Positions 16,997 to 31,821 of a stretch of 64,000 nucleotides of DNA are shown here, one piece after another; the stretch's first letter is position 1, and every line of letters begins with the position of its first letter. Below the pieces are notes generated by a model that was given only the letters and a program-made list of their open reading frames with translations, was not told the origin of the DNA and searched no databases. A program made the position numbers and the translations under genes. This DNA is from Verrucomicrobiota bacterium. GTDB lineage: Bacteria; Verrucomicrobiota; Verrucomicrobiia; Verrucomicrobiales; DEV007. The stretch covers positions 1-64,000 of the forward strand of contig DAOUQC010000005.1 of the NCBI GenBank assembly GCA_030625775.1. Direction: 5' to 3'.

Positions 16997-19900
16997 TTAT
17001 TCTTTCAAGCTCGCCAGATAGGCAATCAAATCGCGCAGTTCGTATTTTGTCATTAGCAAACCGACGGGCGGCATGGCGGAAATGGGAGGTTGGCGGTTCT
17101 TGATATTACTGAGAGGGATTTTTCTTTCGATGCTTTTTGTGCTGTCTTTGGGATCAGGAAATTTTACCACAATGTGTTGTTCGTTTTCTTCGAGCAAATT
17201 GCCGCCGACGCTGCTGCCGTCTTTCAGGGTGACCATGGTCAGGCCGTAACCGGGAACCACAAAGGTGCTGGGATTGACCAGGGATTCAAGCAGGTAGTCG
17301 GACTTCTGCCGGCTGCCGACGCCGGTGAGTTCCGGTCCGGCAATTCCTCCATCTCCTTTGACGGTGTGGCACTTGGTGCATTGCCCGGCGGGGTGGCTGG
17401 CATAGACGATTTTGCCTTTGGCGGGATCGCCTCCTTTAGTGCAAATTCGGTAGGCCGAGACAATGTTTTTGGAATCGAGGGAAGCGGTGTAGCTTTTGAG
17501 TTTTTCCTGCACCGGGGCCTCTTTGCGTTTGCCTGCCGCTTCGATCAGGTCAAGCTGACTTCCAGCGGGTTCCTTGTCAGCGAGCAGACCAGTGAGCCGG
17601 TCGATGAGTAGCTTGGTGATTTCGGCCGATTCAATCGAGGCCATCAAAGCATAGGCATTTTGCCGGTCACGCAGGTTTTTGGATTGGGCAAGATTCAGGA
17701 TCGCCTGCTGTCCCCGTTGCTGATCGATATGCAAGAGTGAGGCACAGCCTTCTTTACGAATGGCTGCTTTTTTGTCGCTGAGCAATTTGGGGAACAGGTC
17801 ATTAAGTTCAGGGGCTTTGCGTTTGCTGAGTTGTTGCAGGCAGACGATACGCAATTCGAGATCGGCTTGTTTATTGACCAACTGCTGAATGAGCAGCGGG
17901 GTAGGGATGTTAAATCCATATTGCTCAGCGAGCCGGGTGGCGGTGGCAAGCAGGCTTCCCTGGGCGTTTTTCAGAATAGCAGGTAGACCAGCTTGGACTG
18001 TTTTGCTGATATCATCACGCTTTTTGGGATCAAGGGGACGGTGGATGCCTACAGTGGAATCCATGACATTTGGTTGGGGCCATTCACCCAGCGCGTTGAG
18101 AGCTTCAAGCCGGACGAACTCCGGCAATTGCTCATTGGCAGCGTAGTCCAGCAAACGTTTGGCATTTTCATTTTTACCGAGACGGAAATTGGCATTGATC
18201 AGGCGGGTCTGCTGAATGAAATCCCGGTGTCCCTTGGGCAGTGAAACGCTGTCATCCAGCACGATATATTTATCGAGGTGTTTGGCCAGTGCTGGCAGAG
18301 CGTGTTCGAGATTGTTGTCGTTGATCGCACGAATGGCCTCACCGACAAGCGCAGGATCGGGGTCATCGAGAAAGTATTTCACTCGGGGGTCTTTCAAGCG
18401 ACGCAGGGTGAGCAGAATGCCGAGACGCAGGGCAGCAGATTCACTGTCGATTTTCTTGAGCATTTTTTCTGTCTGGTGCAGGTGCCACAGGCCCATCACA
18501 CAGGCGTGGCGGATGAAGGCATCCTTGTTATCATTTTCCGACAGGGTCTCGAATAATTTATCGAGGGCTTGGACATTGTTGCATTTGCCAACACCGATTG
18601 CGGCCTGGGCTCGTACCCGGAGGGAGGGATCATCGAGAGCCTTGAGTAAGGCGTCTCCGGCTTCGACGGTGCGTGAGTCGGTGAGTACTTTTGCGGCTTG
18701 GCTGCGCACTTCGACTTGCTCATCGGCTAGTAGGTCAATGTGGACGGAGAGCAGGGCGGGTTTTTTTCGTGAGAGTTGGCCAAGTCCCCAGATGCCGTGC
18801 AGTCGTTTTAATAGCGGGTTGTCTTGCTTGCTTGCTGCGGTTTTGAGTATATCCGTTGCCACTTCATCAGCTTTTGCAGCGAGAGCAAATTGAGCTTTCT
18901 GACGAACCCGCATGTCGGCGTGGCCGAGCAGTTGGTCGAGGTCGGCGTTGGAGCGGTCATTGAAGGGGCTGAGCAGGAGCTTTTTTGTTTCCAGCACGAG
19001 CTTGCTCTTGAGAAGTTTTTTATCTGCCAGAGTGTAGACATTACCGACATCCTGCTTGCTCCAGCCGTTGTTGTTAAAACAGCTTAGATACATCTGGCCA
19101 TCCGGGCCAAATTCAATATCGGTCAAGCCCATGGCATTCATGAAAACGTGGTGATCGGTGGATTTGAATCCTGCACCGTCTGTTTCGATTCCGAAGGATT
19201 CAATATCGGCACGTGAGCCGCCGAAATTGCAGACAAAAAAGTGGTTTTTGTAGCGTTCGGGAAATGCAGTGCCGCCATAGTTAAAAACAAAACCGGAGGG
19301 GCCCCAGGAAATTTTGTCAACCGGTGGCAGGATCCAGGTGGGCTGGCCTTCGTGACGGGTTTCCCAAAGGGATTCGGTCATCCACGGGTTCATGGGGATG
19401 CTTTTGTGGTCGGGGTGTGCGTAGCGCTGGGTGCGGAGGCTGAGTTGCTGGTAAAAGGTTAAGATGCTTTGGTGGCCAGCTGTCCAACCCGAATCGCCCC
19501 CCTCGAGGATGTAAACCAGTCTGCCGGTGTCCCATTGATCCCCGTCGTTGTCACAGGTGAAAAGATTGCCGAATTGATCAAAGGCCAACTCCTGGGGGTT
19601 GCGCAGGCCCCGGTAGTATTCCTCTAGATTCGAGCCGTCGGGATCACAGCGGAATACCGCACCGAGTGTGGGTTCGTGGTAAGTTCGACCTTCTTTGGTA
19701 GTGAATGAATAACCGCGGTCACCGAGAGAAAAATAGATGCGGCCATCCGGGCCCCAGACGAGTCCGTGCAGATCGTGTCCGGAAAAACTCATGCGAATGC
19801 CGAACCCGTCCTGTAGCGAAGTTCGTTGATCCGCTTTGCCGTCCCCATCTTTGTCTTCGAGTAACCAGAGATGGGGGATGTTGGTGTAATAAATTTTACC

Positions 19901-20455
19901 ATTGCCGCCGTCGAGCAGACCTATACCGGGACCGTCGAGTGGATCCTTGAAGCCGTCGGCAAAGATCCAATGTTTGTCCGCCCGCCCGTCTTGATCGGTG
20001 TCTTCGACGACGACGATACGCTCGCCGACTGTGTTGTAGTGCGAAAGAGGCAGGCGGTCAGCGTGATTTTTGTACATCGCCAGTCGTTCGGCACTGCTTT
20101 GTATCGCATTGTCTTCGAACAGCATATCCTGATTATTACGGATGTCTTCGACCCCCTGTTTCCAGCGTGGCAACTCGGCAATGTAGAGGCGGCCTTTAGC
20201 ATCAAAACAAATGGCGGACGAATTCTGGGTCTGTGATTCGTCAGCAAACAGGCGGGCGACAAAACCTTCTGGAATCTCAAAAGTGGCGATGCGCAGTTTG
20301 GCTTCGTTTTCGATTTCAGCCTTGGTTTTGGGCGTTGCTTTGGGAACAGTTTTTTTGCCAGCCACGGAGCCTGAAGGGACAGCAAAAGTAAGTTGAAGTC
20401 CAAAAATCAAGGATGCTAGCAGAGCGAGAGAGCTGATAAAATAATGAGGCTTCAT
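16997..20455 (-). CDS. PVC-type haem-binding dehydrogenase: beta-propeller, HEAT repeats, C-terminal CxxCH cytochrome domain
   Basis: A large secreted protein of 1152 residues, starting at ATG 20455 with a signal peptide (MKPHYFISSLALLASLIFGL); a longer frame only adds a proline-rich head. Residues about 50-500 form the membrane-bound dehydrogenase propeller, with NPQELAFDQFGNLFTCDNDGDQWD and Asp-rich loops such as EDTDQDGRADKHW. Residues about 540-940 carry HEAT repeats (for example DPSLRVRAQAAIGVG). The last about 130 residues form a cytochrome c domain with haem-binding CTKCH near residue 1024, GPELTGVGSR and a later Met-containing loop. Such proteins are abundant in Planctomycetes and Verrucomicrobia and are presumed periplasmic oxidoreductases, probably for sugars or other alcohols. 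The substrate is unknown. Confidence 0.92.
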   Translation of the reverse strand: MKPHYFISSLALLASLIFGLQLTFAVPSGSVAGKKTVPKATPKTKAEIENEAKLRIATFEIPEGFVARLFADESQTQNSSAICFDAKGRLYIAELPRWKQGVEDIRNNQDMLFEDNAIQSSAERLAMYKNHADRLPLSHYNTVGERIVVVEDTDQDGRADKHWIFADGFKDPLDGPGIGLLDGGNGKIYYTNIPHLWLLEDKDGDGKADQRTSLQDGFGIRMSFSGHDLHGLVWGPDGRIYFSLGDRGYSFTTKEGRTYHEPTLGAVFRCDPDGSNLEEYYRGLRNPQELAFDQFGNLFTCDNDGDQWDTGRLVYILEGGDSGWTAGHQSILTFYQQLSLRTQRYAHPDHKSIPMNPWMTESLWETRHEGQPTWILPPVDKISWGPSGFVFNYGGTAFPERYKNHFFVCNFGGSRADIESFGIETDGAGFKSTDHHVFMNAMGLTDIEFGPDGQMYLSCFNNNGWSKQDVGNVYTLADKKLLKSKLVLETKKLLLSPFNDRSNADLDQLLGHADMRVRQKAQFALAAKADEVATDILKTAASKQDNPLLKRLHGIWGLGQLSRKKPALLSVHIDLLADEQVEVRSQAAKVLTDSRTVEAGDALLKALDDPSLRVRAQAAIGVGKCNNVQALDKLFETLSENDNKDAFIRHACVMGLWHLHQTEKMLKKIDSESAALRLGILLTLRRLKDPRVKYFLDDPDPALVGEAIRAINDNNLEHALPALAKHLDKYIVLDDSVSLPKGHRDFIQQTRLINANFRLGKNENAKRLLDYAANEQLPEFVRLEALNALGEWPQPNVMDSTVGIHRPLDPKKRDDISKTVQAGLPAILKNAQGSLLATATRLAEQYGFNIPTPLLIQQLVNKQADLELRIVCLQQLSKRKAPELNDLFPKLLSDKKAAIRKEGCASLLHIDQQRGQQAILNLAQSKNLRDRQNAYALMASIESAEITKLLIDRLTGLLADKEPAGSQLDLIEAAGKRKEAPVQEKLKSYTASLDSKNIVSAYRICTKGGDPAKGKIVYASHPAGQCTKCHTVKGDGGIAGPELTGVGSRQKSDYLLESLVNPSTFVVPGYGLTMVTLKDGSSVGGNLLEENEQHIVVKFPDPKDSTKSIERKIPLSNIKNRQPPISAMPPVGLLMTKYELRDLIAYLASLKE

Positions 20456-20579
20456 GAAGGGCCAAAGATGGAGGAAGGGTGGACGATCGTCAAATGGAGA
20501 GCGGGACGCTATTGAGTAGGGGGTGCAGGCTGAAAAAGGAGCTTGATTGAGAATCAATAAATTGGGAACGTGATGATTT

Positions 20580-22756: not shown

Positions 22757-23812
22757 TTAGGCTGCTGACTCGGTCTCTTTTTCTGAATCCGAAAAATCGT
22801 CACTTGGGTTGAGGCCGATGAATTCGTTGATGCTATAAGCTTTTTTGTCAATCAGGCATCGGGAGATCCATTGTTCAAAGCGGGAAAAATCAGAATTCTC
22901 TTCCCGGTGATCTCTTATTTTTTGCCAATCGAAATTCTTTTTATTACGCGGTGAAGTGATGCGCCGGTAGGTGAACAGGGATTGGATCGCTTCGAATTCA
23001 CGGGTGAGAAAACTGTGGATGGTGGCAGGTTCGGGCATGTCGTCGAGGGCATCCGCTTCCATGCCAAAGGTGCTGACTCCGATTCCAAAAGTGTTGGCAA
23101 AGTGCCGGATGTCTTCGATCATCTGTTCGTCGTCGATGGGGGCGGCTACCACCAGATCTCCACAGTCAGCCCAGTCGGAAGTGCTCAAACACTGGAACAG
23201 GTCTTCACGTAAAGTTGAATAACTGAGCTCGAGTTTCAGCTTCACACTGGTGACCTGGAAAGGGGCGCTGCCGAGCATTCGTTGCACTTCTACTTGCCGA
23301 CTGTCGAGAATGAATCCGTCCACGTCATCAACTTCACCGACCAGCCATTCGACAATGGCGGCATCGGGGTAACGCCAGCGGTTGGCGCCGGCTTCCGAGT
23401 CGGAAAACGAACGTTCGAAGATGAAGGGGAAGTTCGAGCGGGCTTCACAAAAGCGCTGGAAAAGGGCACGGAACTTATTGGCACGAGACATCGAGATATC
23501 AACGTCATTGTCACTGAGTGCCAGCTTTTCTCCCAGCAATCCTTGGCTGGGAGTAATGAGGTTTCGTGCACTGTGCAGGGAATGAATCGTAGTTGTGCGG
23601 AGGTAATAACCCTGACCCTGCTCGACCTTGGCAATGGGCGAGGAGGGGTCGCAGGACATGATGGAAAAGTGGTAACGCAAGGTGGCGTCACTGTAATTCT
23701 GGTGGAGTCGGTATTTGACCAGCTCAATCAGCTCGGTGCCTTTAATCGAATCAAGGGGAGTTGCCGGCAAAATATCAGGCAGAATGGTCTTGAGTTGGTC
23801 GCGTAGATTCAT
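22757..23812 (-). CDS. HrgA/COG2958-like protein: N-terminal winged helix plus nuclease-like domain
   Basis: A 351-residue cytoplasmic protein. Residues about 1-75 look like a winged-helix DNA-binding domain (TELIELVKYRLHQNYSDATLRYHFS, ending KVEQGQGYYLR). The middle (about 125-255) matches the restriction-endonuclease-like domain of HrgA-type proteins: RWRYPDAAIVEWL, then VTSVKLKLELSYSTLREDLFQCL, STSDWADCGDLVVAA and FANTFGIGVSTF. In relatives the VKLK position reads as the SFELK strand of a PD-(D/E)xK-type core. Here the putative acidic residue before the Lys is replaced (TSVKLK), so activity is uncertain. No methyltransferase is nearby. The C-terminus is acidic and low-complexity. Functional assignment is from remembered family resemblance, not a search. 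Confidence 0.6.
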   Translation of the reverse strand: MNLRDQLKTILPDILPATPLDSIKGTELIELVKYRLHQNYSDATLRYHFSIMSCDPSSPIAKVEQGQGYYLRTTTIHSLHSARNLITPSQGLLGEKLALSDNDVDISMSRANKFRALFQRFCEARSNFPFIFERSFSDSEAGANRWRYPDAAIVEWLVGEVDDVDGFILDSRQVEVQRMLGSAPFQVTSVKLKLELSYSTLREDLFQCLSTSDWADCGDLVVAAPIDDEQMIEDIRHFANTFGIGVSTFGMEADALDDMPEPATIHSFLTREFEAIQSLFTYRRITSPRNKKNFDWQKIRDHREENSDFSRFEQWISRCLIDKKAYSINEFIGLNPSDDFSDSEKETESAA

Positions 23813-23917: not shown

Positions 23918-26900
23918 TTACGGTTGATTTTTGCCTTCGAGCAATTTTTTAGCTACCTGATAACCCTGCTTGTCAGCATTTTTTGATAGACTGCGGAACA
24001 GGTAATCGATTTTCTGCCGGGTGATCTTGCAAAAATACTCGATCATATGAAGAAAATCCTCTTCGTTTTCTATTCCTCCACGATCTAATAGCTGCTGGGC
24101 ACGGGAACAACTTGCGGTGATGGCAAACAATTCGGAGCCAATATCGACAAAACGACCAAGCAGGCATTGTTTTTTCTCCAGCTTGGGGCCGTTGATAATC
24201 ATGGCGTGAAACAACCTGCGCGCGAGTTTGCGGCTGAGACCACGAACTTTACGGAGTTCCCGATTCAGCTTTGGATGTATTTTTCCCTGGCAACCACAAG
24301 TCCCGTATACAGCGGGAACCCATTGCAGGGGATACCACCAGGCATAAAATTTAGCTGCTTTCAGGGCTGCTTTGAAGCGGACTTTTTTAGGCAGAGTGGA
24401 ATTGAGAATGGGACCGCCTACATTGAGATGGGGATCGAGAGCTTCACGGGCAATGAAGAGGCGCATGATCTCACTCGATCCTTCGAAGATGGTATTGATG
24501 CGGCTGTCACGGAGAAAGCGTTCGACGGGGATGCCCTCTTCACCCCGAGCTTTGAGAGACTCGGAGGTTTCGTAACCACGACCACCACGGATCTGCATGG
24601 TTTGCGTGGCAATATCCCAACCGCGTTCACTGCCCCACAATTTTCCAAAGGCGGCTTCGATCCTGATGTCGGCTTTTTTGTCGTGATCGACCAGGGCCGA
24701 AGTGTAGAGCACGATCGATTCCATGGCAAAAGTTTCAGCTGCCATCCTGGCAAGTTTTTGGGCGATGGCGTCGTGTTTGCCGATGGGCGATCCCCACTGG
24801 ACCCGTTCAGCGGCCCATTGGGTGGAAATTTTGACACATTCCTTGGCCAGCCCGGTGCAGGCAGCGGGCAGCGTGATGCGTCCGGTGTTTAAAGTCGTTA
24901 GGGCAACCTTCAAGCCGCGGCCTTCCCCGAGGATGATATTTTCGGCAGGCACACGAACGTTTTTAAAAGTGACCACTCCATTGTAGAGCGCATTCAGCCC
25001 CATAAAACGGCAGCGGTGGGTGATCTCGATGCCAGGGCTGTCCATTTCGACAACGAAGGCGGTGATGGAGCGGGCAGATGGGGGAGAGCCTTTTGGTGGC
25101 GGAGTTTTGGCCATCACCACAAGCAGGCCTGCTTTGAGGACATTGGTGCACCAGAGCTTTTCACCATTGATGACATAGTGATTTTTACTCGGGGTGGCAG
25201 TGGTGCCCATTTTGGCGGGATCCGATCCCACGTCAGGCTCGGTCAGGGCAAATGCAGAAATTTCGCCACCGGCACAGCGGGGCAGGTATTTCTTTTTTTG
25301 CTTTTCGGTGCCAAACAGGATCAGTGGTTGGGGGACGCCGATGGATTGATGCGCTGATACCAGCGCGGTCAGACTGCCGCATTTGGCACCTAGCAACATG
25401 GCAGCCCGGGAGTAGGTGGTTTGCGGCAGGCCGAGGCCTCCGTATTGCTGGGGAATTTTGATCCCAAAAGCTCCCATTTTTGCCAGTCCATTAATGACGC
25501 TTGCCGGTATCTCTCCGTTTTTGTCGATGCGGTCCGCATCCACTTTTTGATCAAGAAACTGTTGTAATTTTGCCAGAAATTCCTCGGAGCGTTTTTCTTC
25601 CTCCTGATTCGGAATGGGGAAGGGGATGATGGATTTCATATCCGCATTGCCCATGAACAGGGAAGCAGAAAAGCTGCGAGGTCCACTGACTTTGTCTCTG
25701 GCGGCTTCAGTCAACTCGAGCGCAGCACGCTCTTCCGGTGACATTTTCGAGGTGTCAATCACTTTGGACGAGGGGGATTGCTCTTCGTTGAGCTTGTCTG
25801 AAGAAAGCAGGGTTTTGGAAACGCTTCGTTTTTTGGCTGGAGAAGGTGTCGGACTTACGGACAGCCGTGAAGCTTTCCTCAGAGAATCAGCAGGCAGGAA
25901 ACGTTCGCCTTCTATGTCGGTCAATTGGTCGAGAATGCTGCAGGCATTGTCCAAACCGAATTGGTGCAGCCAGGTCATCGGGCCTCCTCGGAAAGGGGCG
26001 AAGCCGGTTCCCATGATCATGGCAAAGTCGATGTCGTCAGCACTTGCCGCGACTTTTTCTTCCAGGCAACGCCAGGCTTCATTGGCCATTAACAAGGTCA
26101 GCCGGTTTTGAATGGCTCTCTGACTCATCAAACGCCCCACTTCACTGCGGCGACATTCGAGTGCCGCAGGGTTGGCTTCGTCGGATTTGTGGGAAGAACC
26201 ATCATAACGATAGAAGCCGGCTCCCGCCTTGCGACCGAGGTTTCCGCAATCGACCATTCGTCTCAGAATACCGGGGATTTCAAAACGTTTGCCAAAGGCT
26301 GACTCCAGGGTGCCCGCCACATGGAGCCCTACATCGAGGCCGATTTCGTCGAGCAGACGGATTGGCCCCATCGGCATGCCAAAGGCGAGCATGGCTTTGT
26401 CGATTTCACGGGCATCAACACCCAAATCGTAAAGGCGTCCAGCTTCGATCAGGTAGGGCAGCAGAATACGATTGACCAGAAAACCCGGGCTGTCCTTAAC
26501 CACTACCGGCAGTTTGCCAATGCTGCTGAGAAACTTCAGGCAAACTTCCACATGATTTCTGTCAGTTGTTTCAGGGACCACCACTTCCACCAATTGCATG
26601 CGGTGGACAGGATTGAAAAAATGCAGGCCCAGGATGCGTTCCGGGTGAGTGATCCGGGGATCGTTGCACAGTTCTGAAATAGGCAGGGCCGAGGTGTTGG
26701 TAGCAAGAATCGTATCGGGGCCGGTACGTTTACAGAGATCCTGGAATATTTTCTTTTTGATCTCAATATTTTCGGTAGCGGCTTCGATAACGAGTTCTAC
26801 TTCGTCGAGAGGAACCGGTGATGCGGAGGGGTGAATCCGGTCACGCGCTTGTTTGGCTTCCAGTTCAGTGAGGATTTTTCGTTTCACTGCCGCAGCGAAT

Positions 26901-28009
26901 AGTTTGGAAATCGAACGCATGCCCGAGGCAATTTGTGCTTCGCTGATATCCTGAAGGATAACAGGGTAAGAACGTGAACTCAGCCATTGCGCAATACCTG
27001 AACCCATGACTCCGGCGCCGATGACAGCCGTTTGCAGGATTTGCCCTTTGGGCTTGGGCGCAGATTTTGGTAAGTAGCGCAATTTACGTGAGTGCTCCTG
27101 TAACTGGAAAACACGCATCAAATTTTTGGCCACATCACCTTGGGCCAGCTTGAGCACCGCATCGCATTCCCGTTCGAGAGAGTGGGAGAGTGGAGCCGGG
27201 GCTCCCTGGGCCATCACCCGAAGTGCGGTGAGCGGTGCGGGGTAATGCCCGCGGGTGGCGGCCACGATTTTGCGCCGGGCTGCCCAGGCGATGAGAGGGG
27301 CTGCCAGATGATTGTTGCTCAGGGAGAAGCTTTTTCGCTTGGGTAAACCACGATGAATCAGGCGGGTTGCCATTTCTATCAATCGTTCTGCTGGCACGAG
27401 TTCATCAATGATGCCCGTTTTATAAGCATGGACAGCTGACAGGGTTTTGCCAGCAGTGATCAAGGGGATGGCTTTGCTCAGGCCGATTAATCTTGGCAGA
27501 CGAGTCGAGCCTCCCCAGGCGGGAAGGATGCCCAATTGAGTTTCAGGTAGGCCGATTTTGGTTTTTTTGTTAGGACTGGCAACCCGCCAGTCACAAGCGA
27601 GGGCCACTTCCAAACCACCTCCCAGACAGACGCCGTGGATGGCGGCAACCGTCGGAATTTCCAGATCAGCTAGTTTTTGAAATACACGTTGGCCTTTATT
27701 TACCAGAGTTCGCAGTTCTTCAGGGGAAGCTTGCTGCAGGGCTTCGAGATCTGCTCCGGCCACAAAGATGGAATCCTTGGCGCTGGCAAGAATAAGGCCC
27801 GTTGCCGCAGGCATGTCCCGAATTTCATCGAGGTAGGAATCAAGTGTGTCCAGAGTGTGGGCATCAAATATATTGGCTGATGATTTTGGCCGGTCAAAAG
27901 TCAATACCACGATGTCATCATCGCGAAGATCCAGTCGAATTGGTCGGATTGATTTGAGCGACGATGCGGCGGCTTTCCGTGCGGTCTTTTTTTTGGGCAT
28001 CTTTTTCAT
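23918..28009 (-). CDS. Giant beta-oxidation fusion: enoyl-CoA hydratase, 3-hydroxyacyl-CoA dehydrogenase and acyl-CoA dehydrogenase
   Basis: A 1363-residue protein joining a TFP-alpha/FadJ-type bifunctional enzyme to a VLCAD-like dehydrogenase. Hydratase (about 25-290): FVAGADLEAL oxyanion hole, CLGGGLEVALACDW and GLPETQLGILPAWGG, with both catalytic Glu. 3-hydroxyacyl-CoA dehydrogenase: NAD motif GAGVMGSG near 330, catalytic HFFNPVH, and a second helical repeat up to about 715. A low-complexity K/S/P-rich linker of about 70 residues follows. Acyl-CoA dehydrogenase (about 800-1190): FALTEPDVGSDPA and the catalytic Glu in NTIFEGSSEIMRLF near 1173. The last about 170 residues resemble the extra C-terminal domain of VLCAD/ACAD9. 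It thus carries steps 1-3 of the spiral; thiolase is the gene just upstream. The reading frame is continuous with no internal stop. Confidence 0.92.
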   Translation of the reverse strand: MKKMPKKKTARKAAASSLKSIRPIRLDLRDDDIVVLTFDRPKSSANIFDAHTLDTLDSYLDEIRDMPAATGLILASAKDSIFVAGADLEALQQASPEELRTLVNKGQRVFQKLADLEIPTVAAIHGVCLGGGLEVALACDWRVASPNKKTKIGLPETQLGILPAWGGSTRLPRLIGLSKAIPLITAGKTLSAVHAYKTGIIDELVPAERLIEMATRLIHRGLPKRKSFSLSNNHLAAPLIAWAARRKIVAATRGHYPAPLTALRVMAQGAPAPLSHSLERECDAVLKLAQGDVAKNLMRVFQLQEHSRKLRYLPKSAPKPKGQILQTAVIGAGVMGSGIAQWLSSRSYPVILQDISEAQIASGMRSISKLFAAAVKRKILTELEAKQARDRIHPSASPVPLDEVELVIEAATENIEIKKKIFQDLCKRTGPDTILATNTSALPISELCNDPRITHPERILGLHFFNPVHRMQLVEVVVPETTDRNHVEVCLKFLSSIGKLPVVVKDSPGFLVNRILLPYLIEAGRLYDLGVDAREIDKAMLAFGMPMGPIRLLDEIGLDVGLHVAGTLESAFGKRFEIPGILRRMVDCGNLGRKAGAGFYRYDGSSHKSDEANPAALECRRSEVGRLMSQRAIQNRLTLLMANEAWRCLEEKVAASADDIDFAMIMGTGFAPFRGGPMTWLHQFGLDNACSILDQLTDIEGERFLPADSLRKASRLSVSPTPSPAKKRSVSKTLLSSDKLNEEQSPSSKVIDTSKMSPEERAALELTEAARDKVSGPRSFSASLFMGNADMKSIIPFPIPNQEEEKRSEEFLAKLQQFLDQKVDADRIDKNGEIPASVINGLAKMGAFGIKIPQQYGGLGLPQTTYSRAAMLLGAKCGSLTALVSAHQSIGVPQPLILFGTEKQKKKYLPRCAGGEISAFALTEPDVGSDPAKMGTTATPSKNHYVINGEKLWCTNVLKAGLLVVMAKTPPPKGSPPSARSITAFVVEMDSPGIEITHRCRFMGLNALYNGVVTFKNVRVPAENIILGEGRGLKVALTTLNTGRITLPAACTGLAKECVKISTQWAAERVQWGSPIGKHDAIAQKLARMAAETFAMESIVLYTSALVDHDKKADIRIEAAFGKLWGSERGWDIATQTMQIRGGRGYETSESLKARGEEGIPVERFLRDSRINTIFEGSSEIMRLFIAREALDPHLNVGGPILNSTLPKKVRFKAALKAAKFYAWWYPLQWVPAVYGTCGCQGKIHPKLNRELRKVRGLSRKLARRLFHAMIINGPKLEKKQCLLGRFVDIGSELFAITASCSRAQQLLDRGGIENEEDFLHMIEYFCKITRQKIDYLFRSLSKNADKQGYQVAKKLLEGKNQP

Positions 28010-28022
28010 GTTTCAATCTCGG

Positions 28023-29276
28023 TTAATTTTTCTCCAACCATGCGGCGCCACCTTGGCCTCCGCCGATACACAATGAAATCAAGGCGCGTTTTCCGCCGTT
28101 GCGGTGGAGTTGTTTCAGCGCGGTTAAAACCAAGCGGGCACCACTGGCCCCGACTGGATGGCCGAGTGCAATGGCACCTCCCAAAGGGTTCAAGGTTTTG
28201 GGATTTATCGGCAGCTTCATTTTACGCAGCAGTTTTTCCACCGCCAGAACCTGGGTGGCAAAAGCTTCATTGATTTCAGTGACATCAGCGTCCTGGGGGG
28301 TGAGTTTTGAGTTCAAGGCCATACGTTGGATGGCGTAGGCGGGCCCCAAGCCCATGCGTTTCGGATCGCAGCCAGCGTATGCGTGATCGCTTAATCTGCC
28401 CAGCGGGTTGAGACCGAGTTTTTGCGCCATCTCTTCTGTCATGACCAGCAAAGCCACGGCGCCATCGGTGATCTGGGATGAGTTGCCGGCGGTGACGGTT
28501 CCGGTTTTGCGTTCAAAAATTGCTTTGAGTTTTTCCAGGGCTTCGATGGTCTGGCCGTTCCTCACTCCATTGTCACCCAGGACAAAACCATCCTTGTTGG
28601 CATCGGTGTAAACCGGGCACATTTCTTCATGCAGTACGTCGGCAGCGGCTTCAGCTTTGTGATGCGATTTGAGAGCAAATTGATCTTGTGCCTTCCGGGA
28701 GATATTAAATTCGCGAGCCAGCAGTTCTGCGGTCTGCCCCATGTTCATACCGGCGACGGGATCGGTCAGGCCCATCATCAGGCCCACTATGGGTTTAAAA
28801 TCAGCCGGTCGGAAAGAGGCCATAGCTGAAAGTTTGCTCATAAAATCCCTTGAGCGTGCCAGTTTGGCAAACTTGCCTGCTGTTTGGTATGAATAATAGA
28901 GTGGGATGCGGCTCATGCTCTCCGTGCCACCGACGATGAAGACTTCACCATGACCGGCAGCCATCCGGTCAGAGGCGGTGGTCATGGCTTCCAAGCCGGA
29001 GGCACAGTTGCGATGTACCGTCATCGCTGGCTTTTCTTTTGGGATCCCGGCACGAAGAGCGATCACCCGGGCGATATTGGCGGCTTCGGCAGGTTGGGAA
29101 ACACAGCCGAAAATGGTTTCATCGATGATTTCCGGATCGATGCCTGTCCTGGTGATCAGATTAGTAATGACAGAGATGCCCAGATCGACCGCATCAAAGG
29201 CAGCGAGTGATGTGCCCATTTTTGAGAAAGGAGTGCGAACTCCGTCCACGATCACTAATTGTTTTTTGTTTTTCAT
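28023..29276 (-). CDS. Acetyl-CoA C-acyltransferase (3-ketoacyl-CoA thiolase, FadI-like)
   Basis: Performs the last beta-oxidation step, cleaving 3-ketoacyl-CoA with CoA. The 417-residue length is closer to FadI/TFP-beta than to FadA. The nucleophilic Cys is in HRNCASGLEAM (near residue 91), the catalytic His in GHPVGASGAR near the end, and the second Cys in SLCIGGGQGGA. NEAFA is also present. The ATG overlaps the stop of the ligase gene (ATGA, 29273-29276), and its stop is 13 bases from the start of the fused dehydrogenase gene. Together they would form a TFP-like alpha/beta pair. Confidence 0.95.
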   Translation of the reverse strand: MKNKKQLVIVDGVRTPFSKMGTSLAAFDAVDLGISVITNLITRTGIDPEIIDETIFGCVSQPAEAANIARVIALRAGIPKEKPAMTVHRNCASGLEAMTTASDRMAAGHGEVFIVGGTESMSRIPLYYSYQTAGKFAKLARSRDFMSKLSAMASFRPADFKPIVGLMMGLTDPVAGMNMGQTAELLAREFNISRKAQDQFALKSHHKAEAAADVLHEEMCPVYTDANKDGFVLGDNGVRNGQTIEALEKLKAIFERKTGTVTAGNSSQITDGAVALLVMTEEMAQKLGLNPLGRLSDHAYAGCDPKRMGLGPAYAIQRMALNSKLTPQDADVTEINEAFATQVLAVEKLLRKMKLPINPKTLNPLGGAIALGHPVGASGARLVLTALKQLHRNGGKRALISLCIGGGQGGAAWLEKN

Positions 29277-30784
29277 GAGGTCAATATTTTATTTTTTGGG
29301 CGGTGATCAACGATTTTATCTTCTTTAATCGAGACGCCGACTCCCTGCATTTTTTTTAAAGTTTTGGTATCGTGAAATTCAATTCGGTTAGGGCGGATTT
29401 CCGCATCTGATTGGAATTGCCGGGAGATTGTTTTGGAAAGCTGGTCATTGTTCTGACCTTCTTCAGCCTGCACATGAACGATGATTTCATCGGGTTCCAT
29501 GGGATCGTCATTCACTTTGCGGATTTCGATTTGCCAAACTCCAATGCCGTCGATATCATCGAGAATGTTTTCTAGATCATTGAAGTTCACCAAGGTGCCT
29601 TTGAGCTTGCCGATCTGCAAGCGGTGGATGTCAGACACACGGGAGATCCGGCCACACAGGCGCGGGGTTTTCCTGCCGCATTGAGGGCAGGGCTGGTAAG
29701 TGATGCCGCCACTGATGACGTCTCCGGTGCGGTAGCGCAGGATGACACTGCCGCGGCTGTCGAGAGGGGTGTAGATGATTTCGCCGGGTTCTCTGTCGGG
29801 CACAGCTTTTCCGGTTTCCGGATTGACAATTTCGATGATTCCCAGGTCGGGGTAGAGATGATAGCCCGACGACTCGGCTTTTTCAGTGCCGTGGGCGGGG
29901 CATTCCGGCCAGGCTGTTTTGGATTCTGTGAAAGCATAAGTGGCTATCACTTCCACATTATTGGAGCCGAGTTTTGCTGCGAGGGCACGCAGTTTGCGTC
30001 TCATGCCATTGGGAACTTTTTCGCCGCCCAGAACAAAGCGTTTGAGAGTGTCACATCGGATTCCCTCACTGATCGCTTCTGTCAGGACGTGATAAATAAA
30101 AGTAGGCATTCCAATCAGGGCATCAGGTTTTATTTTTTCAAGCAGCATCACATTGCCTGAAGTCCCCATCACCTTGCCCCCTCCGGTGCTGATGCAAAAA
30201 GCATTGAAACCAGTACTTGCATAGTGGGCCTGCCAGAAGGCCAGATGTGGAGCGAAAGGGAACATGTTGATATGGCGGAAATCAGTTTGCGATTCACATA
30301 TTTCCATCAGGCGACGGCCGGTGAGTTTGAGGTTTTCGATGTCGTGATGAGTGTAAAAAAAGGGCACAGGCTCACTGGATCGCCCGGTTGTGCTTGTCAT
30401 CATGATGGGGCGATATTCCTCTTCGAGTGCAGCTTTGGCCTTTCCTGGGCCTCGTATCAGGGCCCGGAAAATTGTCGAGGGGCGACGTTTGAGCAGGTGT
30501 TTGTCAGGAACGATGATGAAATCCCTGGTGTGATCAGGGTGTTCCGGAGAGGTTAGAAGATCCTTTTTAGAAGTGAAGGGGATTTTGGCGAGGTCACTCC
30601 AGGATTGAATGTCGTCAGGGGAAAGACTGTGCTGCCGGAACAAGTCACGGTAGTGTTTGGAAAAAGGCAGTACGACCTGCTTGAGAAAATGACGGAGTTG
30701 TTTCAGCTGCAACTCGCGCATGGTATCGGGATCGAGTTGATCCCAGTTTTTTCTTAATTGGCGCTGGGCTGATAAAAAGCTCAC
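29273..30784 (-). CDS. PaaK-like AMP-dependent acyl/aryl-CoA ligase family protein
   Basis: A 503-residue member of the adenylate-forming superfamily, phenylacetate-CoA ligase type. The P-loop-like segment is MMTSTTGRSSEPVPFF, the AMP-binding Asp lies in a segment around LRYRTGDVISGG, and TYAFTESKTAWPECP corresponds to the A5 region. The start is GTG in the GTGA overlap with the patatin stop (30781-30784). Position between a lipase and thiolase suggests it activates released fatty acids to acyl-CoA, although classical PaaK enzymes use aryl acids and the true substrate is unproven. There is no separate FadD-type gene in the operon. Confidence 0.82.
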   Translation of the reverse strand: MSFLSAQRQLRKNWDQLDPDTMRELQLKQLRHFLKQVVLPFSKHYRDLFRQHSLSPDDIQSWSDLAKIPFTSKKDLLTSPEHPDHTRDFIIVPDKHLLKRRPSTIFRALIRGPGKAKAALEEEYRPIMMTSTTGRSSEPVPFFYTHHDIENLKLTGRRLMEICESQTDFRHINMFPFAPHLAFWQAHYASTGFNAFCISTGGGKVMGTSGNVMLLEKIKPDALIGMPTFIYHVLTEAISEGIRCDTLKRFVLGGEKVPNGMRRKLRALAAKLGSNNVEVIATYAFTESKTAWPECPAHGTEKAESSGYHLYPDLGIIEIVNPETGKAVPDREPGEIIYTPLDSRGSVILRYRTGDVISGGITYQPCPQCGRKTPRLCGRISRVSDIHRLQIGKLKGTLVNFNDLENILDDIDGIGVWQIEIRKVNDDPMEPDEIIVHVQAEEGQNNDQLSKTISRQFQSDAEIRPNRIEFHDTKTLKKMQGVGVSIKEDKIVDHRPKNKILTS

Positions 30785-31821
30785 TTACTTGCCAGGGTTG
30801 GGGTTCTCTCAGTGGCTGCGATCAGGGCTTTGATTTCAGGTAGGTTGGCTGTGGCGATTTCACGACCGGTCTGGATGTATTCTTCATAGTTGGTGTAGTT
30901 GTGCCAGCTTGAATCGCAGACCACAGGGCGTAGCAGCACATCTGCGCGTCTTGAGCACTCTTCGAGTAAACGGATTTGTGAGCCCATCGCAGCACCGCGT
31001 AAAATGTCGAGCAGATTGCCTTTAGCAAAATAGTTGATTTTTTGATTGAGACATGAGAGTGGGCGCTTCCACCAGATTTTTTTTTGCTGCAGTTGATGGG
31101 CTTTCACGCGACAGTTTTTCAGATCTTCAACTGAGGGGATTACGTTCACGGCAATGACATAATCGATGTCCCGGTCCTTCAGCACATCGACAGGCAGAGG
31201 GTCGGAGACACCTCCATCGACATACTCCACCCCATCCCGTACGGCGGGTTCGAGTATTCCCGGTATCGACAGGCTGGCCCGTACGGCCGAGGCCACATCA
31301 CCGCTATGGAAAACCCTGCGGGCGAAGCCGTTGAGTTCGGTGGCTACGACATAGAGGGGGATGTTTAGCTGCTCGAAGGCAGTCCCCTTTAGTGAACGAG
31401 CAAGCCAGTCTTCAATTTTGTTACCGTGGATGAATCCGCGTCGTGGTGGGAAAACAGGGTCGACAAGCTTGAGCATGTCACGATTGGTATCGAGTTCGGC
31501 TGCGAGTTCGGCCATTTGTTTTCCGTCATAGCCAGCGGCCCATAATGACCCCACATAGGCACCCATGCTGCATCCGGCGATAGCATCGATGTGGATGCCG
31601 TTTTCTTCGAGAACTTGAATGACACCAACGTGGGCAAGACCCTTGGCTCCTCCCGACGACAAAGCCAGACCAATACGGGCTTTGTTCACCGCTTTATCGG
31701 TGGAGGTTTTACGCGTAAACTTGGAAGGGCGGTGGGGAGATCGCAGCAGGTTCCATGGAAACCAACGCCTGCTGCGCTGTTCTTTTTTTCGAGTAAAGGG
31801 GGCGTGTTTGTTGGCTGTCAT
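30781..31821 (-). CDS. Patatin-like phospholipase (RssA/YchK type)
   Basis: A 346-residue serine acyl hydrolase with a Ser-Asp dyad. The oxyanion-hole motif SGGAKG is at 56-61, the nucleophile elbow GCSMG at 83-87 (Ser85), and the catalytic Asp is in YVDGGVSDPLP near residue 203. The first 45 residues are Arg/Lys-rich without a clear signal peptide, so a cytoplasmic or membrane-surface location is likely. It is first in the four-gene lipid operon, with an overlapping junction to the ligase, and would release fatty acids from phospholipid or other lipid. It is divergent from the esterase gene by 157 bases. Confidence 0.9.
   Translation of the reverse strand: MTANKHAPFTRKKEQRSRRWFPWNLLRSPHRPSKFTRKTSTDKAVNKARIGLALSSGGAKGLAHVGVIQVLEENGIHIDAIAGCSMGAYVGSLWAAGYDGKQMAELAAELDTNRDMLKLVDPVFPPRRGFIHGNKIEDWLARSLKGTAFEQLNIPLYVVATELNGFARRVFHSGDVASAVRASLSIPGILEPAVRDGVEYVDGGVSDPLPVDVLKDRDIDYVIAVNVIPSVEDLKNCRVKAHQLQQKKIWWKRPLSCLNQKINYFAKGNLLDILRGAAMGSQIRLLEECSRRADVLLRPVVCDSSWHNYTNYEEYIQTGREIATANLPEIKALIAATERTPTLASK

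What the first reader, a model, noticed from the sequence alone, without database searches (positions are those of the whole stretch)
23918..31821. Four-gene operon covering lipid hydrolysis to full beta-oxidation
Patatin, acyl-adenylate ligase, thiolase and a hydratase/dehydrogenase/acyl-CoA dehydrogenase fusion are packed with two 4-base overlaps and a 13-base gap. Together they encode, in order of transcription, release, activation and all four spiral steps. The 1363-residue fusion of TFP-alpha-like and VLCAD-like modules would channel acyl-CoA through three steps on one chain and could form a complex with the thiolase. No separate acyl-CoA dehydrogenase gene lies in this window.
Basis: partly seen in the sequence, partly recalled or inferred. 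Interest (0 to 1): 0.68.

Follow-up and report, generated by a model that had tools for sequence, protein, structure and literature searches.

The report
Fused beta-oxidation enzyme, no ETF found
In a few bacteria of the phylum Verrucomicrobiota two neighbouring genes of a conserved fatty-acid-burning operon have been joined, several times independently, into one protein that does three steps of the cycle; neither this organism nor any sampled relative in its order that has the operon encodes the standard protein (ETF) that takes electrons away from the first step, so how they are removed is an open and testable question.

Summary
In detail: patatin, PaaK-like ligase, thiolase and a 1363-aa enoyl-CoA hydratase / 3-hydroxyacyl-CoA dehydrogenase / acyl-CoA dehydrogenase fusion lie in one tight operon. 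The fusion is no assembly error: three species of the genus share it, in frame, through a 47-60-residue linker. Relatives carry the same operon as five genes, with the acyl-CoA dehydrogenase (ACAD) separate. Fusion arose more than once: a single clade is rejected (p-AU 2e-5). The ACAD half is VLCAD/ACAD9-type in sequence and predicted fold; the first half is TFP-alpha/FadJ-type. The ACAD and the thiolase are the only ones found in the assembly. Human VLCAD and TFP are reported to bind each other; here they are covalently joined.

Beyond the finding: of 142 sampled genomes of the order, 67 carry this ACAD and none of these has a credible ETF or ETF-QO hit; the only genome with ETF lacks the ACAD. 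So "full beta-oxidation" lacks its standard electron acceptor. Direct reduction of membrane quinone is my preferred idea, untested. E. coli FadE poses the same question, but E. coli still encodes ETF homologues. Chemistry, complex formation, channelling and acceptor are inferred, not shown. A real, recurrent new variant of known enzymes.

The parts
30781..31821 (-). patatin-like lipase, 346 aa, first gene
   Evidence: Pfam Patatin E 2.1e-33; GCSMG and DGG dyad motifs; 5' member of the operon in most relatives
29273..30784 (-). PaaK/FlxY-like adenylate-forming ligase, 503 aa (acyl activation inferred)
   Evidence: Pfam AMP-binding E 2e-9; best NCBIfam FlxY 155 bits, below cut-off
28023..29276 (-). 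thiolase, 417 aa, putative beta subunit; sole Thiolase_C match in the assembly
23918..28009 (-). ECH-HAD-ACAD fusion, 1363 aa
   Evidence: same fusion in two other species of the genus
25865..28009 (-). TFP-alpha/FadJ-type module of the fusion, residues 1-715 (ECH 32-220, 3HCDH_N 327-506, 3HCDH_C 509-602 and second C domain)
   Evidence: FadJ profile covers residues 24-714, 593 bits; ECH Glu (GGGLE, LPET) and HAD His/Glu (GLHFF, VEVV) positions conserved against solved TFP alpha chains
25745..25864 (-). linker, residues 716-755, low-complexity S/P/K-rich, no ATG
   Evidence: open in frame in three species, 47-60 residues by species; fast-evolving
23921..25744 (-). VLCAD/ACAD9-type acyl-CoA dehydrogenase module, residues 756-1363
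   Evidence: profile hits ACAD9 2e-114 and VLCAD 1e-103 over the full length; predicted fold matches VLCAD, Z 39.5; catalytic Glu in IFEGSSE 1174-1180
24314..24346 (-). conserved aromatic motif YxxWYPxxWxP (residues 1222-1232), aligning to the VLCAD membrane-binding segment
   Evidence: Y and W in 141 of 141 orthologue rows, duplicates included; position; VLCAD membrane helix from PMC4374878

Best explanation
This is the fatty-acid degradation operon of many Verrucomicrobiota, in which the TFP-alpha (FadJ-like) gene and the adjacent VLCAD/ACAD9-type ACAD gene have become one protein. Most likely working (inferred): patatin frees fatty acids from lipid; the PaaK-like enzyme makes acyl-CoA; the ACAD module desaturates it; the hydratase and dehydrogenase modules of the same chain carry on; the thiolase, bound as the TFP beta subunit, cleaves off acetyl-CoA. 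VLCAD-type enzymes are dimers and TFP is alpha2beta2, so one ACAD dimer per alpha2beta2 unit would fit. The joint presumably replaces a weak VLCAD-TFP contact of the kind reported in mitochondria. Since ETF was not found, the ACAD flavin must be reoxidised another way; I think most likely by quinone at the membrane, through its VLCAD-like C-terminal segment (this last step about 0.4).
For: Domains and solved relatives. Only ACAD and only thiolase in the assembly, and only one 3HCDH_N match in a TFP-alpha-sized frame. Operon order PAT-LIG-THL-HAD-ACD in most of about 90 loci. Fusion fixed in three species of the genus, with purifying selection on both sides of the linker. Linker without ATG in the genus, whereas separate relatives have an ATG just upstream. 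More than one fusion event. No credible ETF or ETF-QO in ACAD carriers of the order. VLCAD-TFP binding in mitochondria: PMC12838803.
Against: No enzymatic, expression or interaction data. Most relatives manage with separate proteins, so fusion is not needed for function. Seven of 38 ACAD carriers in the phylum sample do have ETF-alpha. Actinobacterial homologues, whose ETF status I did not test, carry a partly similar motif, so the motif does not prove quinone contact. The thiolase scores higher against tetrameric biosynthetic thiolases than against FadI. Proteolytic processing or an internal start cannot be excluded.
Confidence: 0.75

Rival explanations
1. The ACAD module works as an acyl-CoA oxidase, passing electrons to O2 and making H2O2, so no ETF is needed.
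For: No ETF or ETF-QO found in carriers; E. coli FadE produces H2O2 in vivo (PMC11495604).
Against: Sequence and predicted fold are closest to VLCAD/ACAD9, with ordinary dehydrogenases next; no conserved neighbour such as a catalase beside the operon.
Confidence: 0.2
2. An unrecognised, non-ETF carrier protein encoded elsewhere in the genome takes the electrons from the ACAD.
For: ETF absent while the ACAD is conserved; no non-operon gene is widely conserved beside the operon, so any carrier would be encoded elsewhere.
Against: No candidate found; carrier families other than ETF and ETF-QO were not profiled.
Confidence: 0.25
3. The fused reading frame is an assembly or sequencing artefact.
For: The fusions outside the window's genus (L090, L093, L101, L064) each rest on one assembly; L093's close relative L094 has a stop in the linker.
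Against: Three species of the window's genus share the fusion with different in-frame linkers.
Confidence: 0.02
4. The operon runs in a biosynthetic or reductive direction, or on special acyl groups, rather than degrading ordinary fatty acids.
For: Ligase is PaaK/FlxY-like, not FadD-like; thiolase scores best against biosynthetic thiolases; no ETF.
Against: TFP-alpha and VLCAD-type ACADs are degradative in characterised cases (established knowledge); a patatin leads the operon.
Confidence: 0.1

Closest known systems
Human VLCAD (ACADVL) / ACAD9
   Same: full-length sequence match including the C-terminal domain, fold Z 38-39.5, catalytic Glu position, location of the membrane-binding segment
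   Different: fused to TFP-alpha; carries an ETADSLKARGE-type insertion and a YxxWYPxxWLP motif; no ETF found in the genome
Mitochondrial TFP (HADHA/HADHB) and E. coli FadJ/FadI
   Same: alpha-subunit domain order over 690 residues, catalytic residue positions, adjacent thiolase gene
   Different: alpha subunit extended by an ACAD; complex with the thiolase untested
VLCAD-TFP association of mitochondria (PMC12838803)
   Same: the same two enzyme types physically linked
   Different: covalent and in bacteria; in mitochondria non-covalent and ETF/ETFDH-linked
E. coli FadE
   Same: acyl-CoA dehydrogenase with no identified ETF partner (PMC11495604, PMC9329746)
   Different: different ACAD subfamily (814 aa); E. 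coli still encodes three sets of ETF homologues

Membership tests
VLCAD/ACAD9-type acyl-CoA dehydrogenase | ACAD N, M and C domains plus C-terminal helical domain | tested here: met
   Pfam, profile and predicted fold over residues 21-608 of the module; the Pfam ACAD9-ACADV_C domain itself is 25.3 bits, just below its 27.8 cut-off
VLCAD/ACAD9-type acyl-CoA dehydrogenase | catalytic Glu in the RIFEG motif | tested here: met
   invariant in 17 orthologues and aligned to VLCAD
VLCAD/ACAD9-type acyl-CoA dehydrogenase | ETF present as electron acceptor | tested here: not met
   no ETF domain found in the assembly or in operon carriers of the order, apart from one below-cut-off partial hit in G006; this tests the partner, not the enzyme, so I file the module by sequence and fold only
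VLCAD/ACAD9-type acyl-CoA dehydrogenase | very-long-chain specificity and membrane binding | not testable with these tools
   needs assay
TFP alpha subunit (FadB/FadJ/HADHA) | ECH plus HAD with two C-terminal domains, about 700 aa | tested here: met
   FadJ profile 24-714, below the equivalog cut-off, so not FadJ itself; solved TFP alpha chains aligned
TFP alpha subunit (FadB/FadJ/HADHA) | two ECH Glu and HAD His/Glu | tested here: met
TFP complex | alpha2beta2 assembly with thiolase | not testable with these tools
   only gene adjacency was tested
FadD long-chain acyl-CoA synthetase | FadD-type AMP-binding enzyme | tested here: not met
   best match FlxY/PaaK; long-chain ligase model 18 bits

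The most novel reading that the evidence does not exclude
A one-chain VLCAD-TFP beta-oxidation enzyme in bacteria that lack ETF altogether, feeding ACAD electrons directly to membrane quinone: an ETF-free form of beta-oxidation in most Verrucomicrobiota that carry this operon, with fusion as a repeated refinement.
Probability: 0.35. Interest if true: 0.75.

Novelty: new variant of a known kind. Interest (0 to 1): 0.55.

Why it matters
Repeated fusion of a VLCAD-type ACAD with TFP-alpha is independent evolutionary support for the VLCAD-TFP contact proposed in mitochondria, and offers a single-chain object for structure and channelling work. The absence of ETF and ETF-QO beside a conserved ACAD makes the question raised by E. 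coli FadE (can an ACAD feed the respiratory chain without ETF?) testable in genomes where ETF homologues do not confuse the answer.

Tried and rejected
Assembly artefact: rejected by three species. A single ancestral fusion: rejected by AU test; L093 is doubtful because its close relative L094 keeps a stop. G102 and G005, with long open frames, are not fusions: a HAD stop precedes. Acceptor gene beside the operon: only the operon genes are widely conserved; the next family is in 11 of 90 loci. ETF-QO as direct acceptor: absent in carriers. Aromatic motif as an ETF-free signature: weakened by a partly similar motif in Actinobacteria and its presence in ETF-positive carriers. Literature searches for this fusion or operon found nothing; the library omits most subscription journals.

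Full report
Observation. The four minus-strand ORFs are exactly as described, with the stated domains. The fused protein matches FadJ-type TFP alpha over residues 24-714 and VLCAD/ACAD9 over 756-1363.

The fusion is real. Two other species of the genus, G061 and G510, encode it at 83-86% identity (G510 is cut by a contig end, so its ACAD is incomplete). Between G000 and G061 both modules evolve at dN/dS about 0.06 with dS above 1, while the linker is fast-evolving yet open, with length changes in whole codons. A linker of this size would lack stops by chance in about 13-18% of shuffles, so openness alone is weak evidence; the agreement of three species and the loss of the start codon that separate relatives carry upstream of VIDTSKMS are stronger. 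The in-frame ATG within SKM remains but has no evident Shine-Dalgarno site (own reading).

Ancestral state. In the order sample 67 of 142 genomes have the orthologous ACAD (my count at E below 1e-130), nearly always as a separate gene of about 600-650 aa following a FadJ-like gene. The order patatin, ligase, thiolase, HAD, ACAD recurs in most loci, also outside the order. No other gene is widely conserved around it. Fused forms: the window's genus; G011/L101 (ACAD C-terminus apparently truncated); G027/L064 (short linker); L090; and doubtfully L093. On an 86-row tree, starred branches force four changes (L064 not included, L093 counted as fused); in a 36-row tree that includes L064 and leaves out L093, starred branches force three changes and one clade is rejected, p-AU 2e-5.

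Structure. The AlphaFold model of the ACAD module (pLDDT 84.7) matches human VLCAD at Z 39.5, 547 residues, 2.7 A. A low-confidence part, residues 470-490 of the module, aligns to the VLCAD segment hypothesised to bind membrane (PMC4374878). There these ACADs carry a near-invariant YxxWYPxxWLP motif, absent from two other VLCAD-like ACADs of the phylum that could be aligned there but partly present in Actinobacteria.

Electron acceptor. ETF-alpha (PF00766) was found in 1 of 142 genomes of the order, G014, which lacks this ACAD. ETF-QO was found in G014 and weakly in G038, neither an ACAD carrier. The ETF domain (PF01012) was found in G014, plus a 22.8-bit, below-cut-off, 43-residue hit in the carrier G006, which I regard as spurious; none was found in the window's assembly. 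Control genomes rang for all three searches. The order result is an absence, not a correlation: with one ETF genome, Fisher p is 1. In a 388-genome phylum sample 7 of 38 carriers have ETF-alpha against 212 of 350 others (Fisher p 6e-7), not corrected for shared ancestry. So ETF cannot be the general partner, though it could be in those seven.

Interpretation. In mitochondria VLCAD is reported to interact with TFP (PMC12838803). E. coli FadE has no identified ETF partner and direct quinone reduction has been suggested (PMC11495604, PMC9329746). The window unites both themes. Shown: gene structure, homology, conservation, recurrent fusion, absence of detectable ETF. Inferred: substrate, chemistry, complex, channelling, quinone reduction.

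Noticed in passing
window 22757-23812 (-): 351-aa ORF just downstream of the fusion (105-base gap) with no Pfam or NCBIfam match; no family is conserved downstream of the operon in relatives.
   Followed up: partly
L093 and L094: Close relatives, one with an open HAD-ACAD linker and one with a stop in it followed by an ATG: either a snapshot of fusion in progress or an error in one assembly.
   Followed up: partly
G000:C4:12637-13158 (L040): A second full 3HCDH_N match in a 334-aa frame, a possible stand-alone hydroxyacyl-CoA dehydrogenase.
   Followed up: no
L185, L186 (Streptomyces, Nonomuraea): Actinobacterial ACADs about 48% identical to the module; none of the other operon proteins matches within 6-8 kb.
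   Followed up: partly
window 16997-20557 (-): 1186-aa protein with DUF7133, HEAT repeats and a cytochrome c-like end.
   Followed up: no
L059, L061, L068: MAG records titled Klebsiella or Proteobacteria hold this otherwise verrucomicrobial operon and cluster with verrucomicrobial rows: probably mislabelled bins.
   Followed up: no
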